From contig JADLFM010000057.1 in the NCBI GenBank assembly GCA_020845495.1, forward strand, positions 1 through 40,497: a stretch of 40,497 nt of DNA, written 5' to 3'. A model generated the notes under the pieces. It saw only the letters and a list, made by a program, of their open reading frames with translations. It was not told the DNA's origin and searched no databases. Shown here one piece after another: positions 24,788-35,159 of this stretch (positions within the stretch are counted from its first letter, which is position 1; each line of letters begins with the position of its first letter). A program made the translations under genes and the position numbers. The DNA is from Chloroflexota bacterium (GTDB lineage: Bacteria; Chloroflexota; UBA6077; JACCZL01).

Positions 24788-25384
24788 CTAGACGACGATG
24801 ATGCCGATCTCGCGCGCCAGATCCTCGAACTGTTGGCGCGTGACGATCGTGCCCGTCAGATCGTGCTTGCGGATGTTCCAGCCGGTGAGGGTGGCGCCGC
24901 GCAAGTCGGTCTGCGCGAACTTCGCCTCACGAAACTCGAGGTTCGATAGATCGGCGTCCACGAATGACACCTTCTCGAGGTTCGCAAGCGACAGGTCAGC
25001 CTCCACGAGCAGGCAGCGAGTGAAATCGGCGTTCGCGAGGTCGAGTCCGCGAAAGTTGCTGTAGGTCAGGTTGCAGCCGCGAAAGGCCACGGCGGTGATG
25101 TCCTCGACCTCCGTGAAATCGACCCCGAGCAGTTTGCACTTTTCAAACTCAGCGGAGAACAGCCGGGCGCCGCGCACGCGCGCGTTGGCAAGGTTGCAGG
25201 CGCGGAACTGGGCGGCATTCAATCGGGCGCCGGTGAAGTCAGCATTCTCGAACGAGCACTCGACGAACGTGCATTCCTTGAGGCTCGCTTTTTCGAACGA
25301 GAGGCCGTCGAACACTGTGCGCTCGAACCGGTCGCCCTCGCAGATGGTACCGACGTCGTCTTGCGAGAAGACCCTCGTCCTCAT
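24788..25384 (-). CDS. Pentapeptide-repeat protein
   Basis: The 198-residue protein consists almost wholly of A(D/N)Lxx-type pentapeptides, for example CSFENADFTGARLNAAQF, SNFRGLDLANADFTRCLL and DLSNLEFREAKFAQTDLRG. These predict a right-handed quadrilateral beta-helix. Some repeats carry cysteine where alanine is usual (ECTFVECSF, KCKLLGVDF). It has no signal peptide or membrane segment, so it should be cytosolic. Characterised relatives mimic DNA and protect DNA gyrase (Qnr, MfpA), but many have unknown roles, and I see no feature that proves a gyrase link. The start is ATG 25384 (GTG 25387 directly precedes it) with a weak ribosome-binding site. Confidence 0.9.
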   Translation of the reverse strand: MRTRVFSQDDVGTICEGDRFERTVFDGLSFEKASLKECTFVECSFENADFTGARLNAAQFRACNLANARVRGARLFSAEFEKCKLLGVDFTEVEDITAVAFRGCNLTYSNFRGLDLANADFTRCLLVEADLSLANLEKVSFVDADLSNLEFREAKFAQTDLRGATLTGWNIRKHDLTGTIVTRQQFEDLAREIGIIVV

Positions 25385-25538
25385 CACACCATCTTTCGCG
25401 CCGAATACTGGGGCACCAGATACCGGGGGGCACTGAAGCGTGCATGCGGATCTCACGGGGAGTGTCACCTGCCAATCCGCGGCCCGCTGATGCCGCGGCC
25501 CGGACTGGCAGGCGTCTGGGTATCGGGGTCGGCAGCCG

Positions 25539-26027
25539 TCAGCCGGCGCGGGATGGGACGCCTGAGGCGGCACTGGCCCGGAACGCCTCGACGATGCGAA
25601 CGACCTCGGCCTCGTCGACGTGGACGGTGCCCTCGGCGGCCTGCCGGCTCAGGTCGAACAGGGCGAACGCCTTGGCGCCGTTCGGGGTCTCGCGGTACCT
25701 GGGGACCATGTGGCAGTGGAAGTGCGGAAAACTCTCGCCCATCGCCGCCGTGTAGATTCGCAGCGCGCCAGTGATCTCGCGCAAAAGTCCCTCGAAGTGG
25801 CGGAGCGTCGGCCCGAAACTCTGGGCTTCCGTGTCGTCGAACTCGGCCGGCTCGGGGACGTGGCGGCGGGTCTGGAGGGTCAGCCAGCCGGCCACGCCGT
25901 ACGGCGGCGCGCTGTGCCGTACGACCCACAGGTCATCCTGGTACAGCAGGCCGTGGGGCACGGCGAGGGCGCCGCTGCTCACGGCACAGATCCGGCACTC
26001 GGGGGCGCTCTGATGGTCGGGCGTCAC
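25539..26027 (-). CDS. HIT family protein
   Basis: The 162-residue protein has the histidine-triad motif HFHCHMV with H104, H106 and H108, preceded by the nucleotide-binding PPYGVAGWLTLQTRRHVPEP strand-loop. A CRIC pair (C13, C16) near the N-terminus resembles the zinc-binding cysteines of Fhit/Hint-type proteins. HIT enzymes hydrolyse or transfer nucleoside monophosphates linked to phosphates, amines or sulphates. The start is GTG 26027, with AGGAG seven bases upstream. A heptanucleotide array starts 21 bp before the start codon and so lies in the promoter or leader region. Confidence 0.88.
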   Translation of the reverse strand: MTPDHQSAPECRICAVSSGALAVPHGLLYQDDLWVVRHSAPPYGVAGWLTLQTRRHVPEPAEFDDTEAQSFGPTLRHFEGLLREITGALRIYTAAMGESFPHFHCHMVPRYRETPNGAKAFALFDLSRQAAEGTVHVDEAEVVRIVEAFRASAASGVPSRAG

Positions 26028-26458: not shown

Positions 26459-26487
26459 TTGACCGATCGCCGGAGGGGGCGTATGCT
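26459..26487 (+). promoter_or_regulatory. Sigma-A-type promoter of the sigma-factor operon
   Basis: TTGACC (26459-26464, 5 of 6 to consensus) and TATGCT (26482-26487) are separated by exactly 17 bp. Transcription is expected to start near 26494, within the segment that carries the LexA-like box, and about 35 bp before the first gene. Confidence 0.65.
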
Positions 26488-26499
26488 GCCAATGGAATA

Positions 26500-26511
26500 G
26501 AACATTTGTTC
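26500..26511. promoter_or_regulatory. LexA-box-like operator
   Basis: GAACATTTGTTC, flanked by A and G, matches the Gram-positive LexA box (CGAAC-N4-GTTCG type) at both half-sites, with 9 of 10 specified positions. It lies at about +6 to +17 relative to the predicted transcription start, an ordinary operator position. LexA control is inferred from motif and placement. Confidence 0.65.
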
Positions 26512-26528
26512 GAATACGGAGGTAGGTT

Positions 26529-27062
26529 GTGACCGCTCCTGTCGTCGATACCCCCGGACGCGCGGCCCGGCGGCCCCGAACGCCTCGCATCTCCACATCG
26601 TCAGCCGCACCACCTGTCCGTACCCAGAAGCCTCCGCCGGAGAGCCGAGCCGGGGGGCCAACGGTACGGCTGGAAGTCAGGCGCGGCAGCAGGTCGAACG
26701 TCAGCGCCGAAGCCGAACTGGCGTCCGCTTGTGCTACCCCTCCGGACGAACCGGTTGGCTCGGGCGCGCAGGGAGGCTCGGACGAGCATGCCAGCCGGCC
26801 ACTCGACACGACGGCTGTAGCTGGCATCGAAGGGCTAGCCCAGGAGACGGCGATGCTCCGCGCCGCGATCCGACGCCTTGCCGAGGGCGGAGATGCCGGC
26901 CGCGACGTGCGCATTCTCGCCGAGCTACGCCATCAAGTCGGGGCGCTCTGCACGGCGCTCAAGACCCAGCACGATCTCCAGGGGAGCCTGGCCGACGACC
27001 TGTCGACCGAGCTTGCGCGCGCGCTCGAAGAGCTTGGCGACACCGTGGGGGTGCCGCGATGA
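26529..27062 (+). CDS. Unknown coiled-coil protein, first gene of LexA-box operon
   Basis: The 177-residue protein is not assigned to a named family. Residues 1-95 are disordered and rich in P, R, A, S and T. Residues 100-177 form a leucine-patterned helical region (EGLAQETAMLRAAIRRLAEGG, then an L-x-x-x-L-x-x-x pattern to ELARALEELGDTV), which should make a helical bundle or coiled coil. GTG 26529 has GGAGG six bases upstream. The stop overlaps the start of the next gene (ATGA at 27059-27062), so the two are translationally coupled. The arrangement suggests a partner or regulator of the sigma factor encoded two genes on, or part of a membrane complex with the next protein. Confidence 0.75.
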   Translation: MTAPVVDTPGRAARRPRTPRISTSSAAPPVRTQKPPPESRAGGPTVRLEVRRGSRSNVSAEAELASACATPPDEPVGSGAQGGSDEHASRPLDTTAVAGIEGLAQETAMLRAAIRRLAEGGDAGRDVRILAELRHQVGALCTALKTQHDLQGSLADDLSTELARALEELGDTVGVPR

Positions 27063-27418
27063 GCGGACAGTATCGATTCGAGGCGGAGCAGGGCGGGCGG
27101 CGGCGCGAGGGAGCGCGTCATGAGGGGCCGGGCGCCCTGGCACGGGCGCTCGAACGGTGGCGGCGCGCCCTGCCGGCCGAGCGGGCCGCCTCAGGCGAAG
27201 GGCGCGGCCTACCGGCCAGCGTGAGCGAGCTTGCCCGCCGCCTGGACGACAGTGGCTGCGCCTACGGCCGGGTCAGCGCGGCGCGCCTGGAGCACCTGAC
27301 GCGGGCGTACGAGCGCCTCGAGACCAAGTTGAACGCCGTCCTGATGGCGGCGACGGGGACATTCCTGAGCACCCTGGCCGGCTTGCTCCTGTACTACGTC
27401 CGGGGGGCAGGGCATTGA
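27059..27418 (+). CDS. Small protein with C-terminal membrane helix (holin/XhlA-like layout)
   Basis: The 119-residue protein has a charged N-terminal half and a short coiled coil (RLEHLTRAYERLETKLNAVL). A single membrane-spanning segment of about 20 residues follows (MAATGTFLSTLAGLLLYYV), with a very short tail RGAGH. This coiled-coil-then-helix layout resembles small phage or bacteriocin accessory proteins such as XhlA, but the likeness is one of architecture, not of proven homology. An anti-sigma role is another option, since it lies between an ATGA overlap upstream and the TTG start of a sigma factor downstream. It is expected in the cytoplasmic membrane with its N-terminus in the cytosol. 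Confidence 0.75.
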   Translation: MSGQYRFEAEQGGRRREGARHEGPGALARALERWRRALPAERAASGEGRGLPASVSELARRLDDSGCAYGRVSAARLEHLTRAYERLETKLNAVLMAATGTFLSTLAGLLLYYVRGAGH

Positions 27419-28605
27419 GCCAGCGGAGGCCGATCGACGTTCGAGATGCCCGCCGGCCGGCCCGCCCGCCAGCACAGCCGGCTGAGAGCGAAGCTGCCGA
27501 TGAGCCGGAGGGGCGTGGCGATACGCTCAGAGAGGTCAGCGGCTCGTTGGCGGGCGACTCGTTGGCGATGGGCGGCCTGGCGGGCGACTCGTTGGCGATG
27601 GGCGGCCTGGCGGGCGACGCGTTGGCGGGCGGCTCGTTGGCGGGCGGGTCGTTGGCAGGCGACTCGTTGACGATAGACGGTGTCGCGGCGGACGATCTGG
27701 CGGCGGACGATCTGGCGGCGGAGGACGCGCAGATCACCGCCACTGCCAACGATCTGGCCCGCGCCTACCAGGCCGGGCGGACCGAGGCACTCGCCGAGTT
27801 GTTCGACCTGCTGCGCCCGCTGCTCCAGTACCCGCTTGGGAGGTACGGGCACGGGCGGCGCGGGCTCCCTTCGGCGCTCGACATGGACGACCTCCAGCAG
27901 CAAAGCTGGCTCATTCTCGACGGCCTCGCCCGGCGCTGGGATCCGGCTGTCGGCGACTTCCCGGCCTATATCCGACGGGCGTTCGCCTGGGAGCTCTGGC
28001 GGTACGTTCGGTCGCTCTCGCCGAGCCGGCGGGCTAGAGCCGTCCGGGTGGACAACGTCCAGCATGACGACCTCCTCGAGCGGCTAGGCGAGCAAGCTGG
28101 CGCGGATGGGCGCGCCTGGGACGACGATCTGATCGTGACCGAACTGCTGGCGGAGCTCGATCCTGTAGCGCGCTGGACGCTGCTGCTCCACATCCTCGAG
28201 GATCGAGCGCTCGACGATGTTGCCCGGGCGCTCGAACTGACCCAGGCGACCGCCTACCAGACCTACCGGCGGGCGCTCGATTGGCTGCGGCTGCGGGCCG
28301 ACCTGGACATGGACCCGGACGACGCCCTCGCACGCGAGCCAACTGGCCGGCCGGCCATCGAGCGGCTCGTGGAGGCGCTGCACGCCGGCGCGGGGCCAGG
28401 CCGTCGGCTGCCGGGCCGAGCTTCAGTCTGTGCGGCGGCGAAGCTCTCGGAAGTCCGCTTCGCCCGACTGATGGGGCTCCTCATCGAGCTCGGGTGTGTG
28501 GAGGGACGGTCGGCGCGCAAGCCGGGTCGACTGATCCACACGACGCCGGCCGAGACGCTCACCCACCTGCGGCACGCAACGGCGCGCATCGCCGCCGAGG
28601 TATGA
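27415..28605 (+). CDS. Sigma-70-family sigma factor with pentad repeats and winged-helix-like C-terminus
   Basis: The 396-residue product starts at TTG 27415, which overlaps the TGA of the preceding gene, with GGGGGGCAGGG just upstream. Residues 42-103 are twelve five-residue units of the GDSLA/MGGLA/ADDLA type. Region sigma2 spans about 106-215: DMDDLQQQSWLILDGLARRWDP and FPAYIRRAFAWELWRYVRS, the usual -10-recognition helix. Region sigma4 spans about 240-290 (LAELDPVARWTLLLHILEDRAL, then DVARALELTQATAYQTYRRAL). The last 100 residues add a winged-helix-like domain (KLSEVRFARLMGLLIELGCVEGR). Ordinary ECF sigma factors are about 170-200 residues, so both ends are extra. The upstream LexA box suggests DNA-damage control; its target promoters are unknown. 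Confidence 0.85.
   Translation: MSQRRPIDVRDARRPARPPAQPAESEAADEPEGRGDTLREVSGSLAGDSLAMGGLAGDSLAMGGLAGDALAGGSLAGGSLAGDSLTIDGVAADDLAADDLAAEDAQITATANDLARAYQAGRTEALAELFDLLRPLLQYPLGRYGHGRRGLPSALDMDDLQQQSWLILDGLARRWDPAVGDFPAYIRRAFAWELWRYVRSLSPSRRARAVRVDNVQHDDLLERLGEQAGADGRAWDDDLIVTELLAELDPVARWTLLLHILEDRALDDVARALELTQATAYQTYRRALDWLRLRADLDMDPDDALAREPTGRPAIERLVEALHAGAGPGRRLPGRASVCAAAKLSEVRFARLMGLLIELGCVEGRSARKPGRLIHTTPAETLTHLRHATARIAAEV
27538..27723 (+). repeat. 15-bp in-frame repeats (pentapeptide units) in the sigma-factor gene
   Basis: About twelve 15-bp units built on GGCGACTCGTTGGCG lie in frame near the 5' end, and a 30-bp higher unit (GDSLAMGGLA) is repeated exactly twice. Gain or loss of units would change protein length without shifting the frame. 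Confidence 0.85.
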
Positions 28606-28738: not shown

Positions 28739-29428
28739 TCAGCCGCCGAGCGGGTCGAGCAAGGGCAGCACCCGATCGAGCCGTGTGATTCGGTGGTCGA
28801 AGCGGCTGCTCGTGCCGTAGTCGCCGCTCTGGTGCGCCTGCTCGATCTTGACGGCGACCATTCCAAGATCCCTGGCAGCGTCAAGTTCGGTGAAGGCACC
28901 GTCGGCCACGAACATGCAAGCGGCTGGCTCGACGCCCAGGGAGCGGCACGCATGCTCGAAGATCGCGGGGTCCGGCTTCGCGACGCCGACCTCGTAGGAG
29001 AGTACGAGCGCTTCGAAGGAGTCGGCCAGCCCAATCCGCCGAACGACCTCGCCGGCCTGCGCTGAGCAGTTGCTGACCAGTCCGCGCTGGTACCCGCGTG
29101 CGCCAAGCTCGGCGAGGAGCGGCAGCGCCTCCGGATAGAGCGTGACGGCCGAGGCCCAGCCGGCCGCCTCGACCTCGGCCAACTCAACGACGAGCGCGGG
29201 TGACGGATCGACGCCAAGCTGACCGAGCATCACCCGAATCTCGTCCTCCAGGCCGCCGAGCTTGCCGAGCATCCGATCGAGGACGTTGGCGTGCCAGAGG
29301 GCGGCCCATGCGTCCGGATCGACGCTCGCGCGTACTGCGAGTTTGTGGCGCGTCTCACGGACGGCCGCGGGTGTCAGGTAGAGGAGCGTGTCGTACAGAT
29401 CGAAGAGGACGGCGCGAATCCTCGTCAT
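28739..29428 (-). CDS. HAD family hydrolase
   Basis: The 229-residue protein starts MTRIRAVLFDLYDTLLYL. The nucleophile is D10, and position +2 is tyrosine (D-L-Y-D-T), as in haloacid-dehalogenase-type members rather than the D-x-D of most phosphatases. Motif II is SNCSAQ, the lysine lies in GVAKPDPAIFEHA, and motif III is VADGAFTELDAA. A helical cap lies between residues 20 and 95. It is cytosolic; the substrate is unknown. The ATG overlaps the stop of the upstream AIR-synthase gene (ATGA at 29425-29428), so the two are translated together. Confidence 0.9.
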   Translation of the reverse strand: MTRIRAVLFDLYDTLLYLTPAAVRETRHKLAVRASVDPDAWAALWHANVLDRMLGKLGGLEDEIRVMLGQLGVDPSPALVVELAEVEAAGWASAVTLYPEALPLLAELGARGYQRGLVSNCSAQAGEVVRRIGLADSFEALVLSYEVGVAKPDPAIFEHACRSLGVEPAACMFVADGAFTELDAARDLGMVAVKIEQAHQSGDYGTSSRFDHRITRLDRVLPLLDPLGG

Positions 29429-30438
29429 CGCGTCTCTCCGGGTGGCGCGTACGCTTCGAGGATGCGCCAGAGTTCGTCGCGAACGACCGGCCCAGCCTCG
29501 ACCGGGCGCCCGTTGACCATCACCCACCGTCCGTCCTCGGTGACCCGGCCAATCGGCGCGACCGGGATGCCGCGCTCGCGGAGCCCCGTCAGCAGCCGTC
29601 CCGGCTCCGGGCAGGCGATCAGCAGCGCGCCACTCGAGATCAGCCGGAGCACGTCCGCCCCAAAGACGGTGCACACCGCGCGGGTTTCCTCCCGCACGGG
29701 AACGGCGCTCGCGTCGACCTCGAAGCCGACGCCGGATGCCTCGGCCAGTTCCCAGAGCGCGCCGAGCACCCCGCCTTCGGTCGGATCGTGGAGGGCAGTC
29801 GCTCCAAGCTCGGCGGCAAGCACCCCTTCCGGCACGACGCTCAGTTCCTGGGTGAACGTCTGGGCGCGGGCAATCGTCGCTGGATCGAGCCGCCCACGCA
29901 AGACCGACTCCAGATCGGTCGCCAGGATCGCCGTGCCTTCTAGTGCGGCCGCCTTGGTCAACAAGAGCGTATCGCCGGGGCGGGCGCCGCTCGACGCGAC
30001 GACGCGGTCCCGCCGCGCCCGCCCCACCGACGTCATCGCGACGATGGGCGCGGTCACGCTGGCGGCGACCTCAGTGTGCCCGCCGAGCACCTCGATGCCC
30101 AACTCGCGGGCCGCCCGGTCGATATCCTCCATCATCCGAGCGACGTCCGCCTCGTCAGATGTTGGGGGGAAGATCAGGGTGGCGAGCACGCCGACCGGCC
30201 GAGCGCCCATCGCGGCGATGTCGTTGCAGGAGACGTGGACGGCGTACCAGCCGGCCCCGGCACCGGCACCCGTGATCGGGTCCGACGACAGCACGCAGAC
30301 CTCATCGCCGAACGCGACGGCCGTCGCGTCCTCGCCGATGCGAGCGTGAATGACGACGTCTGAGCGGCGCGTCCCCAGCCGATCCAGGACGAGCCGCTGG
30401 AGCGTGGACGGATCGAGCTTGCCGGTTCTCAGCCCCAC
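29425..30438 (-). CDS. AIR synthase-related protein (HypE/PurM/ThiL superfamily)
   Basis: The product (about 337 residues) has the PurM fold signature: LRTGKLDPSTLQRLVLDRLG, IGEDATAVAFGDEVCVLSSDPITG (ATP/magnesium-binding GEDA loop), HVSCNDIAAMGARPVGVLATL and HDPTEGGVLGALWELAEASG. It most resembles the 'AIR synthase family' relatives of HypE. It lacks the C-terminal PRxC cysteine that HypE needs for cyanide-ligand synthesis (it ends EAYAPPGETR), and no hydrogenase genes are near. It probably makes or uses a phosphate-activated small molecule. GTG 30438 follows CAGGGGG; the frame is open to ATG 30525, which would add 29 low-complexity residues. Coupling to the HAD hydrolase suggests the two act on one metabolite. 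Confidence 0.83.
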   Translation of the reverse strand: MGLRTGKLDPSTLQRLVLDRLGTRRSDVVIHARIGEDATAVAFGDEVCVLSSDPITGAGAGAGWYAVHVSCNDIAAMGARPVGVLATLIFPPTSDEADVARMMEDIDRAARELGIEVLGGHTEVAASVTAPIVAMTSVGRARRDRVVASSGARPGDTLLLTKAAALEGTAILATDLESVLRGRLDPATIARAQTFTQELSVVPEGVLAAELGATALHDPTEGGVLGALWELAEASGVGFEVDASAVPVREETRAVCTVFGADVLRLISSGALLIACPEPGRLLTGLRERGIPVAPIGRVTEDGRWVMVNGRPVEAGPVVRDELWRILEAYAPPGETR

Positions 30439-31257
30439 CGCCGCCCCCTGCCGGTCGCTTGCCCGCACATCATCGCTCCGTTCCTCCACGACACTGTCGC
30501 TCTCTGCCCCTCTCGTTGCTCGCATAGTACGGGAATCGTCGCGGCGGCTGGCCGGTTGACGGCCAGATCAAGTGTTGACGAGACCGGCGAAAGGTGAGAC
30601 CGGCGAGCAACAGGGGGGGCACCGCGTCACGCCAATCGGTCGGAAGCGTTCAGGACGAGCGGGATACCGCGGGCCGCGCGCCCACGCCCGTTGTCGAGAT
30701 GGAAAGCAGCCGTCTGAGGCGCCCCCCTCGATCTGCGCAATGACGCGCACACATCACGTTGCTCCTCTCCTGAAGCAGCGGCGCCGCGAGCGGCGAGCAG
30801 GCGTTCCATTCTTACAAAGATGTGTCAAGGGCGGCAGGACTTGTGTGTGCCCTCCGAATTCGCTACATTGAACGCTACTCCTGCATTCAGCGCGGGCCGA
30901 CCTGGCGCGCGCGAGCGAGGAGACTGGCACCGCGGTCGGGTGTGAGAGGCGGGGAATGTGGAGCCCCGCGATGCGCGCCTCCAGAGCGTACGAGCGTAGC
31001 CGTATGCCACTTCGCCCCGGCGTCGTGTATACGCCCAGGCTGCCCACAGGGTTCGTCGACATGGCACACCTGGCCGTTCCGGGCGCGACGAGCGTAGGGT
31101 GACCGGCGAGAATTGCCCTGGCTGAGCCGCCAGAGATGCCTCACCAGTCCTCGTCGCCTGCCCAGAGCGGACCCGGTGATGGTGGGTACCCTCCTGGCAT
31201 TCGAACGGTAGGCGGCGCTCGCCTGCGCCCGGTCAGGGAGTTAGAAAGCCAGACACT
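30439..31257. other. Long divergent intergenic region
   Basis: About 0.8 kb separates the AIR-synthase gene (minus) from the cyclase gene (plus). I see a short hairpin at 30548-30566 (CTGGCCG, 5-nt loop, CGGCCAG), a repeated GAGACCGGCGA (30580s-30610) and a candidate promoter at 30841-30869. Several open frames exist, but none has a credible start or family likeness. The length would allow a small RNA or a riboregulated leader; I cannot support one. Confidence 0.4.
30841..30869 (+). promoter_or_regulatory. Candidate promoter upstream of the cyclase operon
   Basis: TTGTGT and TACATT are separated by 17 bp and point to the cyclase gene, leaving a leader of about 380 bases. The motif quality is modest. 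Confidence 0.3.
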
Positions 31258-33024: not shown

Positions 33025-33078
33025 CGTATGCCCGGGCCGACACTCAGGCCCGTGGCACGAGGATAAGGAGGGGTGGGC

Positions 33079-34032
33079 ATGACCGGCAATACGGGCAATA
33101 CCGGGAATACCGGGAATACCGGCAACACGGGCAATACGGGCATCGCCGGCGATATGGGTACCTGGTTCCTACCGGACCGGGTGGATCTCCCTTTTGTGAC
33201 CCTACGCGACCCAGCCAACGCCGCGACGACACTTGGCGAACTGTACCCTACAGGGCTGACCGCGTTCCCGCAACGGTACTGGGCCGCCAAGTGGAACGCC
33301 TGGCTCGTGCTGGATCAGTTCTCACAAGCTGGGCCCTGGACGAAGGATCTCGACGATGCTGTAGCCGACGTGGACGCCGAGTTCAGGCGGGCCGGCGCCC
33401 TGGACACCGAGTTGCGTAATCTCGTACGGGCAGCGCGGGACGAGCGGGCTGAGGCGATGGGAGAAATCCTGTCGCAAGACATCGAGTTCTTCAGCGACTT
33501 CATGGGGCTGCTGATGATCGCGCCCAGTTCGCACCCGGGCACCTATCGCGTCCTGCACATCGCCAGTCTGATCGCGTCGTTCGGCGCGCTCCACTACAAG
33601 GGCATCTACAACCGGGCGCGGCCGTCGCAGCGCTGCCCGGCGCTGCGGCCGCCGATCCCGGTGCCGGGACATTCATCGTTCCCCAGCGGCCACGCCACGC
33701 AAGCACACCTGATGGCTCGCTGTGCCGATCACATCCTCACCGGCACGTTGTCGACGACTGACGCCCGGATCTACCGCGCCGGCCTCACCGCGCTCGCACG
33801 CCAGGTGGCCCGCAATCGGGAGATCGCTGGCGTGCACTTTCAGAACGATTCCGAAGGCGGCAAGGTGCTCGCGGACAAGGTGTTCGCGCGGCTCGCGGCG
33901 CTGACCAGCGGGCGATTCTTCGACGCGGTCCAGGCCGCACGGGACGAATGGCGGCAGCCTGCGCAGTCTCACAGCGGAGCCGTACATACCGCTCAGACGC
34001 AGGTCGCGCAGACAGGGGATGGGCACGCATGA
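33079..34032 (+). CDS. Vanadium-dependent haloperoxidase / PAP2-like protein
   Basis: The 317-residue protein carries the three-part PAP2/vanadate-binding motif: K-x6-RP in YKGIYNRARPSQR, PSGH in FPSGHATQAH, and R-x5-H-x3-D in NREIAGVHFQND. These residues bind phosphate in acid phosphatases and vanadate in haloperoxidases, so either activity is possible. No signal peptide or membrane helix is visible. The N-terminus is a run of GNT/TGN triplets (residues 2-22) encoded by 9-bp DNA repeats. ATG 33079 has GGAGGGG seven bases upstream (GTG 33073 in frame is less likely). The stop overlaps the next start as ATGA (34029-34032). Confidence 0.88.
   Translation: MTGNTGNTGNTGNTGNTGNTGIAGDMGTWFLPDRVDLPFVTLRDPANAATTLGELYPTGLTAFPQRYWAAKWNAWLVLDQFSQAGPWTKDLDDAVADVDAEFRRAGALDTELRNLVRAARDERAEAMGEILSQDIEFFSDFMGLLMIAPSSHPGTYRVLHIASLIASFGALHYKGIYNRARPSQRCPALRPPIPVPGHSSFPSGHATQAHLMARCADHILTGTLSTTDARIYRAGLTALARQVARNREIAGVHFQNDSEGGKVLADKVFARLAALTSGRFFDAVQAARDEWRQPAQSHSGAVHTAQTQVAQTGDGHA
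33082..33147 (+). repeat. 9-bp in-frame repeats encoding Thr-Gly-Asn triplets
   Basis: Seven units of the ACCGGCAAT / ACGGGCAAT / ACCGGGAAT type follow the start codon of the haloperoxidase-like gene. They encode a short collagen-like Gly-x-y run without proline, probably a flexible lead. Confidence 0.9.
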
Positions 34033-35159
34033 GCGAGAATCCACCCGACGTGCCGACGGCCGCCCAGACACCTGCTCAACCATCTGCCCAGGCGGCTGCT
34101 CGGACGACCGTCGAAGGCGATATCGACCTGGACCCCCTCCGGAAAGAGCTCGAGGAGACGACCCTGATCTGCGATCCCTCAGGCATCGATGCCGAACTGC
34201 TGCGGATAGCGCCGGAGGATCGCCATCAGTGCGGATTGCCGCCGGAACCGGACGAGCGCACCGAGCCCGCACAGTACCGATTCTGGCACGACCTGTTTGA
34301 ACCACTCCCACGGTTCGTCGACCCGGAATTCAGGTTCGTGCTCCACCAGTTCCAGCGTACGTTTCCGGTGCGGACCGCCGTCATCCGTACGTCCCACGAG
34401 GGCAGCCGTAACTGGTCTGGCGCCTACATCACGCCCCGAGACGGGCTGATGTTTACGGGGGTATTTGGCGCGTGGCGCATTCCGGAGGTGTCGCGGCCGG
34501 ACGGCACGCCGTCCGAGAACGAGTACGGAAGCTCGACCTGGATTGGGCTCGACGGCCAGCGAAAATATCTCGATTCGTCCCTGCCGCAGATTGGCACCGC
34601 GCACTACCTGGTTCGCGACGGAAGCAGCCTGGAGCCCAAAACCTGGGCCTGGTGGCAGTGGTGGAACCGAGACCAGCCAGCGCCACCAGTTGAACTGGCG
34701 CTGAAGGTATCCCCAGGTCACCTCATCCTGTGCGCACTGCTCGTCGTCAACGCGACGCAGGTCATGTTCTTGATCAAGAACCAGGACACTAGCGAGATGT
34801 GCAAGCCGTTCATCAAGACGGCGCCAAAGGCCAGGATGCCAGATGGCACGGACGTGCAGGTGCGCATATCTGGCGCGACTGCCGAGTGGGTCATGGAACG
34901 GCCCGCGGAGTGGCCCACCGACCGGCTCTACGAACTGCCCGACTACGGCACGGTCACCTTCAGCAGGTGCTTCTCGGTCGCCGCTCCCGATCCAGGGCGC
35001 TTTGGACGCGAGGAGACGGTCGAGGCTGCCCGTCTCATCCGCATGTACGCCGTCAAGGAGCGCCCAGACCGAACGCTCACCATCTCGACGGCGAAGCGAA
35101 GCGGCCCATTCAACATCACGGCGAGTTACGTTCCCGAGGGCTCGCTACAGTTTCCCTGA
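34029..35159 (+). CDS. G1 family (glutamic) endopeptidase, eqolisin-like
   Basis: The 376-residue protein contains a G1 peptidase domain at about residues 110-375. It has NWSGAYITPRDG opening, SSTWIGLDGQRKYL, the catalytic glutamine segment LPQIGTAHYL, WAWWQWWNRD, and the catalytic glutamate segment TAEWVMERPAEWP, then LPDYGTVTFSRC. Characterised eqolisins are secreted fungal acid proteases with a Gln/Glu dyad; both residues are present here. Residues 1-110 are an extra N-terminal region (Ala/Pro/Thr-rich, then acidic) with no signal peptide. The start overlaps the stop of the haloperoxidase-like gene, so the two are co-translated. The substrate is unknown. Confidence 0.88.
   Translation: MSENPPDVPTAAQTPAQPSAQAAARTTVEGDIDLDPLRKELEETTLICDPSGIDAELLRIAPEDRHQCGLPPEPDERTEPAQYRFWHDLFEPLPRFVDPEFRFVLHQFQRTFPVRTAVIRTSHEGSRNWSGAYITPRDGLMFTGVFGAWRIPEVSRPDGTPSENEYGSSTWIGLDGQRKYLDSSLPQIGTAHYLVRDGSSLEPKTWAWWQWWNRDQPAPPVELALKVSPGHLILCALLVVNATQVMFLIKNQDTSEMCKPFIKTAPKARMPDGTDVQVRISGATAEWVMERPAEWPTDRLYELPDYGTVTFSRCFSVAAPDPGRFGREETVEAARLIRMYAVKERPDRTLTISTAKRSGPFNITASYVPEGSLQFP

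What the first reader, a model, noticed from the sequence alone, without database searches (positions are those of the whole stretch)
26459..28605. LexA-box-controlled operon encoding an unusual sigma factor, a one-helix membrane protein and a coiled-coil protein
Seen: a TTGACC-17-TATGCT promoter with GAACATTTGTTC at about +6 to +17, then three genes joined by an ATGA overlap and a TTG/TGA overlap. The last is a sigma-70-family factor with extra domains at both ends, and the middle is a small protein with one C-terminal membrane helix. Known: in Clostridium perfringens uviAB, LexA controls a sigma factor and a small holin-like protein that drive bacteriocin release. Inference: this is an SOS-induced sigma cassette that switches on an unseen target set (prophage, bacteriocin, gene-transfer or damage response). 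I know of no description of this combination in this type of organism.
Basis: partly seen in the sequence, partly recalled or inferred. Interest (0 to 1): 0.82.

Follow-up and report, generated by a model that had tools for sequence, protein, structure and literature searches.

The report
DNA-damage switch for phage-like particles
A Chloroflexota bacterium carries a DNA-damage-controlled switch, a sigma factor made together with two phage-packaging-type proteins, that looks like the command unit of a domesticated virus (possibly a gene transfer agent) whose shell genes sit elsewhere in the chromosomes of its relatives.

Summary
In detail: a housekeeping-type promoter, a GAACN4GTTC box and three overlapping genes (26459-28605). 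The box is a LexA box: it precedes lexA in 20 of 20 related genomes where a family search found lexA, and precedes all 9 strong relatives of the sigma gene (0 of 13 weak hits).

The target set is probably a phage-derived particle. A specific capsid protein (E<1e-130) occurs in 8 of 29 class genomes, the same 8 with the strongest sigma relatives. Portal, large-terminase and tail/holin operons, at separate places, carry the box. In seven sister genomes homologs of ORF1 and of the one-helix protein stand just before the large terminase; in five sigma genomes they are missing there, and ORF1 (with or without the helix protein) is in the sigma operon. In G014 a sigma gene sits back to back with the whole cluster.

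At the box, sigma operons (10/10) and lexA (6/6) have good housekeeping promoters; 0 of 12 phage-operon boxes do. This suggests LexA cleavage, then sigma, then capsid operons. Sigma's targets, particle formation and host-DNA packaging are inferred, not shown. Nearest analogues: PBSX/Xpf and RogA-GafYZ control of the Caulobacter GTA.

The parts
26459..26464 (+). -35 element TTGACC
   Evidence: conserved in homologous operons
26482..26487 (+). -10 element TATGCT, 17-bp spacer
   Evidence: 9 of 12 consensus bases; 0 of 200 shuffles reach it
26500..26511 (.). LexA box GAACATTTGTTC over the likely transcription start
   Evidence: lexA of relatives has the same box; conserved before sigma homologs
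26518..26523 (+). Shine-Dalgarno-like GGAGGT before ORF1
   Evidence: Direct reading
26529..27062 (+). ORF1, 177 aa; homolog of the gene in small-terminase position just upstream of the large terminase in sister genomes
   Evidence: (hhalign E 2.4e-18); naming by position only, fold not recognised
27059..27418 (+). Small membrane protein, 119 aa; homolog of the gene between the small-terminase-position gene and the large terminase
   Evidence: (hhalign E 9e-15)
27335..27391 (+). Predicted membrane helix (residues 93-111)
27415..28605 (+). Sigma-70-family factor, 396 aa
27539..27727 (+). Tandem repeats in the low-confidence N-terminal part of sigma
27841..27981 (+). Sigma region 2 (residues 143-189)
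   Evidence: E 0.0015, below the Pfam cut-off; 19 of 20 homologs in A2 match (E up to 10)
28132..28284 (+). Sigma region 4 (residues 240-290)
   Evidence: E 6.7e-6
28354..28599 (+). Conserved extra C-terminal domain of sigma (residues 314-395)
28739..29674 (-). HAD-type hydrolase ORF, neighbour also in L001 and L002 (not part of the operon)
29425..30525 (-). AIRS-type ORF, neighbour also in G002, G021, G022 (not part of the operon)

Best explanation
The operon is the LexA-controlled command unit of a phage-derived, chromosomally scattered particle system of Chloroflexota, most likely gene-transfer-agent-like. DNA damage inactivates LexA; the housekeeping polymerase then transcribes ORF1 (small-terminase-like by position), the small membrane protein of the packaging module, and the sigma factor. 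The sigma lets the polymerase read the separate portal-adaptor-capsid, large-terminase and tail/holin operons, many of which carry a LexA box but no housekeeping promoter, so that LexA loss and sigma are both needed. Shown by sequence: the box, its conservation, the homologies, the co-occurrence, the promoter contrast. Inferred: that this sigma reads those promoters, that particles form, that they carry host DNA, and that the window's own genome (not held) has the particle genes.
For: LexA box: 20 of 20 lexA-bearing genomes; 9 of 9 strong sigma homologs, 0 of 13 weak ones; 58 AGAACN4GTTCT sites against 5 for the reversed control in 9 genomes. Boxed phage operons: portal, large terminase, tail, holin. 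Capsid in the same 8 of 29 genomes as the strongest sigma hits. ORF1 and TM homologs before the large terminase in 7 genomes, absent there in 5 sigma genomes. G014: sigma gene back to back with the full cluster under LexA boxes. Promoters: 16 of 16 sigma-operon and lexA boxes with a good housekeeping promoter, 0 of 12 phage-operon boxes.
Against: 5 of 10 repair-gene boxes also lack a good housekeeping promoter at that place. Some particle loci of sigma genomes have no box just upstream (large terminase of G021 and G022, portal of G001). The capsid is in 46 of 400 phylum genomes but the sigma in 9. The G014 sigma was not reached by the A2 profile, so its kinship to the window sigma is not shown. 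Capsid divergence does not follow LexA (r -0.12, P 0.61), while sigma (0.72, P 0.012) and portal (0.86, P 0.042, four genomes) do. At least 492 IMG/VR contigs carry capsid relatives and an integrase-like gene lies beside the G025 relative. No particle, packaging or expression data. The candidate sigma motif is weak.
Confidence: 0.62

Rival explanations
1. The particle loci are ordinary or decaying prophage pieces. Temperate phages of this lineage use LexA boxes; the sigma operon is a leftover phage early region.
For: At least 492 IMG/VR contigs carry capsid relatives; capsid divergence does not track LexA; G025 has an integrase-like gene beside portal and terminase.
Against: The sigma operon keeps host neighbours (AIRS in window, G002, G021, G022; HAD in window, G001, G002). 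In G003 and G021 terminase, capsid cluster and sigma operon are on three contigs with host-type genes around. The G025 integrase, used as the only query, found nothing else in 44 loci; other integrases were looked for only by eye.
Confidence: 0.2
2. A PBSX-like killing or lysis system: the sigma drives particles that kill competitors or lyse the cell, not gene transfer.
For: PBSX has the sigma-like factor Xpf and answers DNA damage (passages). Holin and amidase genes are present.
Against: Nothing here separates killing from transfer; terminase and portal homologs point to DNA packaging, which PBSX also has (recalled).
Confidence: 0.2
3. An SOS sigma for repair or bacteriocin genes (UviA-like); the phage operons are only co-regulated by LexA.
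For: 5 of 10 repair-gene boxes lack a good housekeeping promoter. UviA-type clostridial sigma factors drive bacteriocin and toxin genes (passages).
Against: The operon encodes two packaging-module homologs; sigma and capsid co-occur in the class; in G014 a sigma gene adjoins the cluster.
Confidence: 0.1

Closest known systems
PBSX of Bacillus subtilis with its sigma-like factor Xpf
   Same: Phage-derived particle genes switched on after DNA damage by a sigma-like factor (passages of PMC9836290 and PMC10141391).
   Different: PBSX is one prophage-like region with its own repressor (recalled). Here LexA boxes stand on both tiers, the loci are scattered, and the sigma is in an operon with packaging-module genes.
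Caulobacter GTA: LexA-like RogA repressing gafYZ (and RcGTA GafA)
   Same: A LexA-family repressor controls a dedicated transcription activator of a particle cluster; GafA has sigma-like regions (passages). Sister genomes here have a LexA paralog followed by a sigma gene.
   Different: RogA lacks key cleavage residues and the GTA work was SOS-independent in part. Here the box is that of lexA itself and the activator is a sigma-70-family factor.
Faecalibacterium GTA (FpGTA)
   Same: Particle genes in two operons about 125 kb apart in one strain (passage of PMC12946183).
   Different: No LexA-boxed sigma unit is described in the passages seen.
UviA (Clostridium perfringens)
   Different: Drives bacteriocin; here the partners are phage packaging-type genes.
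SU10-type tailed phages
   Same: Capsid and adaptor match SU10-type Pfam families.
   Different: Portal matches the SPP1 type; genes are chromosomal and scattered.

Membership tests
LexA (SOS) regulon | Operator identical in kind to that of lexA in the same genomes | tested here: met
   20 of 20 related genomes with lexA; window's own lexA not available
LexA (SOS) regulon | Operator conserved before orthologs | tested here: met
   9 of 9 strong sigma homologs
LexA (SOS) regulon | LexA binding and induction by DNA damage | not testable with these tools
   Needs experiment
Sigma-70 family (ECF-like) | Regions 2 and 4 | tested here: met
   Region 4 above cut-off, region 2 below it; TIGR02937 just below its cut-off; structure matches
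Gene transfer agent | Phage-derived head, packaging and lysis genes | tested here: met
   In relatives, not in the window
Gene transfer agent | No integration or replication genes; chromosomally fixed, vertical | tested here: inconclusive
   No integrase noticed by eye except G025; sigma and portal track LexA, capsid does not
Gene transfer agent | Particles carrying random host DNA | not testable with these tools
   Needs experiment
Small terminase (TerS) | Position directly upstream of the large terminase | tested here: met
   Homologs in 7 sister genomes, with the TM gene between; in the window no terminase is adjacent
Small terminase (TerS) | Recognised TerS fold or family | tested here: not met
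   No Pfam/PHROG match, no fold match (model of low confidence)
Holin-like/UviB or XhlA protein | Match to a holin family | tested here: not met
   No holin family in Pfam or PHROGs for the TM protein
UviAB cassette | Associated bacteriocin gene | not tested
   Not searched for
Ordinary prophage | Contiguous genome with integrase | tested here: inconclusive
   Scattered in G003 and G021; G025 has an integrase-like neighbour; assemblies are fragmented

The most novel reading that the evidence does not exclude
Chloroflexota carry an old, widespread gene-transfer-agent-type element whose production is decided directly by LexA through a dedicated sigma factor: a two-key switch in which capsid operons are LexA-repressed and readable only by a sigma that is itself LexA-repressed and co-made with packaging-module proteins. 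Sister lineages may reach similar wiring with a LexA paralog in tandem with a sigma.
Probability: 0.45. Interest if true: 0.9.

Novelty: new variant of a known kind. Interest (0 to 1): 0.8.

Why it matters
If true, it adds a phylum to GTA-type systems: the listings of four full-text searches showed no paper titled or abstracted as describing a GTA in Chloroflexota (one search listed 20 of 25 papers), and 'Chloroflex' is absent from four GTA or related papers searched for it. The library lacks most subscription papers and bioRxiv as a collection. It would give a short wiring from DNA damage to particle production and make testable why cells with broken DNA would make particles. The capsid profile marks loci in 46 of 400 sampled phylum genomes.

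Tried and rejected
Anti-sigma reading of the TM protein (one-helix partner of an ECF-like sigma): set aside because its homologs also sit beside the large terminase and five sigma loci lack it (L030, L032, L033, L034, L035).

Sigma relatives in viral contigs: none by pattern. In genome contigs: only 3 by pattern.

Sigma promoter motif: TGGTGTGG 39-49 bases upstream of the box in six clade-A boxes; shuffle P 0.02-0.13 over the word lengths tried, after seeing it by eye, so suggestive only.

LexA boxes in 91 viral-contig loci: 11 against 6 for the reversed control, so no clear enrichment.

ORF1 as a solved small-terminase fold: no match. A resemblance of sigma's C-terminal domain to an FtsK-gamma-type winged helix came from memory and was not tested. 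My simple gene caller chose wrong frames in places (L104, L108); phage genes there were located by tblastn.

Choices before counts: the promoter test used 12 phage boxes at 11 regions and left out G008 (L138) and L056; 10 repair boxes, chosen by eye. Pfam later checked 8 of those 10: 7 matched, L092 had no match; L075 and L093 were not scanned. Several boxes were not assigned to a gene (for example L058, L060, L066, L071, L073, L078, L081, L086). The profiles contain most of the sequences they find; the TM hits in L141 and L145 were not in the model.

Full report
What is there. The window is 40,497 bases, 68% G+C, from an organism for which no whole genome is held. At 26459-26511 it has TTGACC, 17 bases, TATGCT, then GAACATTTGTTC. 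Three genes follow: ORF1 (26529-27062), a 119-residue protein with one C-terminal hydrophobic helix (27059-27418) and a 396-residue sigma factor (27415-28605). The box by itself could be chance: 28 of 100 shuffled windows hold one.

It is a LexA box. Relatives of the sigma were found in three named records (two titled Chloroflexi/Chloroflexota, one Proteobacteria) and, through them, in a class of which 29 genomes were searched. All 9 hits at E 9e-14 or better have GAACN4GTTC upstream; none of the 13 weaker loci does (one of the 13, L017, is a contig-end fragment). A lexA family search found lexA in 3 of 3 genomes and 17 of 19 (none in G022 and G025). All 20 have the box upstream of at least one lexA copy; in G012 only the second-best locus has it. 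Seven further LexA paralog loci (L282-L288) have none. AGAACN4GTTCT occurs 58 times in 9 sigma-bearing genomes against 5 for the reversed pattern, and more often than the control in each. recA was not examined.

What else carries the box. Reading the genes after boxes gave lexA, Y-family polymerase (PF00817), Rad52-type (PF04098), helix-hairpin-helix and radical-SAM proteins, and phage genes. Families for phage genes of these loci: major capsid protein (phrog_212, E 8e-74; PF17236), portal (PF05133; phrog_64, E 9e-44), SU10-type adaptor (PF24175), large terminase (PF17289), holin (phrog_1299), amidase (PF01510). Between genomes the capsid is 59-78% identical and the portal 59-69%. In G003 and in G021 the large terminase, the portal-to-capsid cluster and the sigma operon are on three contigs. 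None of 19 phage-protein queries hit the window.

Link between sigma and particle: co-occurrence. The capsid profile scores E<1e-130 in 8 of 29 class genomes, the same 8 whose sigma scores E<1e-40. One weak capsid hit (G020, 1e-18) has no sigma; G016 has a weaker sigma (9e-14) and a different, protease-fused capsid-type gene like those of G007 and G014. Fisher P is 2e-7, not corrected for kinship. In 400 sampled phylum genomes the capsid is in 46 (E<=1e-10) and the sigma in 9, so the sigma is one lineage's way of control, not a constant partner.

Link: packaging-module genes inside the operon. In G004, G005, G007, G012, G014, G015 and G016 homologs of ORF1 and of the TM protein stand directly before the large terminase. 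Profile comparison: ORF1 E 2.4e-18, probability 99.0 (one of seven rows of A9 was in a wrong frame); TM E 9e-15, probability 98.4. At the large-terminase loci of five sigma genomes (G003, G021, G022, G024, G029) neither is found, while in the ten sigma loci (window included) ORF1 is found in 8 and the TM gene in 5. G021, G024 and G029 have ORF1 without TM; G016 and G023 have sigma without either. Large-terminase loci of G008, G009, G013, G025 and a broken hit in G002 also show neither; no large terminase was found in G001 and G023.

Link: G014. A sigma gene (PF08281, E 3e-8) is back to back with ORF1-homolog, TM-homolog, large terminase, portal, protease-capsid, a weak adaptor match, amidase, a tail-type gene and holin within about 11.6 kb, with LexA boxes between them. 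That sigma is short and was not reached by the A2 profile, so kinship to the window's sigma is not shown.

How it probably works. At the LexA box, sigma operons (10 of 10, window included) and lexA (6 of 6) have good housekeeping promoters, mean 9.5 and 10.7 of 12 consensus bases, against about 6 in shuffles. Twelve phage-operon boxes average 6.75 and none beats its shuffles at P<0.05. Repair genes are mixed, 5 of 10. In G014 the sigma side has TTGACA-17-TACTAT and the capsid side has no such promoter. The simplest reading is a two-key circuit: LexA cleavage frees both tiers; the first, read by the housekeeping polymerase, makes sigma and packaging-type proteins; the second needs that sigma. 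The candidate recognition motif is weak, so the last step is inference. Some particle loci in sigma genomes show no box just upstream (large terminase of G021 and G022, portal of G001).

The proteins. The sigma has regions 2 and 4 and an extra C-terminal domain modelled with high confidence; the best solved matches are sigma factors and their complexes. ORF1's model is of low confidence and matches no solved fold, so it is named by position only. The TM protein matches no holin family and the element has another holin-type gene.

Gene transfer agent or phage? For a domesticated element: scattered loci, host-type neighbours, compact gene set, a kept place of the sigma operon (AIRS gene beside it in window, G002, G021, G022; HAD gene in window, G001, G002), shared flanking genes of the capsid locus in G003 and G021, and divergence of sigma (r 0.72, P 0.012, seven genomes) and portal (r 0.86, P 0.042, four genomes) following LexA. 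Against: capsid divergence does not follow LexA (r -0.12, P 0.61), many virus-labelled contigs carry the capsid, an integrase-like gene lies beside the G025 relative, several genomes are fragmented assemblies, and nothing is known of particles.

Sister lineages. G004, G006, G007, G010 and G015 carry a LexA paralog directly followed by a short sigma-type gene (Pfam for G006 only). Three of these five (G004, G007, G015) have a large-terminase hit. This resembles Caulobacter, where the LexA-like RogA represses the GTA activators.

Known or new. SOS plus a phage sigma-like factor is the PBSX/Xpf plan (passages); LexA-like control of GTA activators is known in Caulobacter (passages); split GTA loci are known (passage). 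A LexA-boxed operon joining packaging-module genes to a sigma, with capsid operons elsewhere, was not met in the listings of nine literature searches in an open-licence library. I file it as a new variant of a known kind.

Noticed in passing
L282, L283, L284, L285, L286 (G006, G004, G010, G007, G015): A LexA paralog without the GAACN4GTTC box is directly followed by a short sigma-type gene; possibly an alternative control unit.
   Followed up: partly
L107 9383-11736 (G003): The large-terminase gene looks interrupted at its Walker A motif by an intein-like insert.
   Followed up: no
L153 6734-9094 (G025): Integrase-like gene beside portal and large terminase, so this relative may be a true prophage.
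   Followed up: partly
window 33073-35159: PAP2-type and peptidase A4-type genes side by side; the first begins with a short repeated stretch.
   Followed up: no
window 24788-25573: Pentapeptide-repeat protein about 1 kb upstream of the operon on the other strand.
   Followed up: no
L254 9372-9486 (G378): Two GAACN4GTTC boxes directly upstream of a scaffold-capsid pair beside core genes, in a genome outside the sigma class hits.
   Followed up: no
L075, L080, L092, L093: Rad52-type single-strand-annealing-like genes (PF04098 confirmed for L080 only) directly after LexA boxes.
   Followed up: partly
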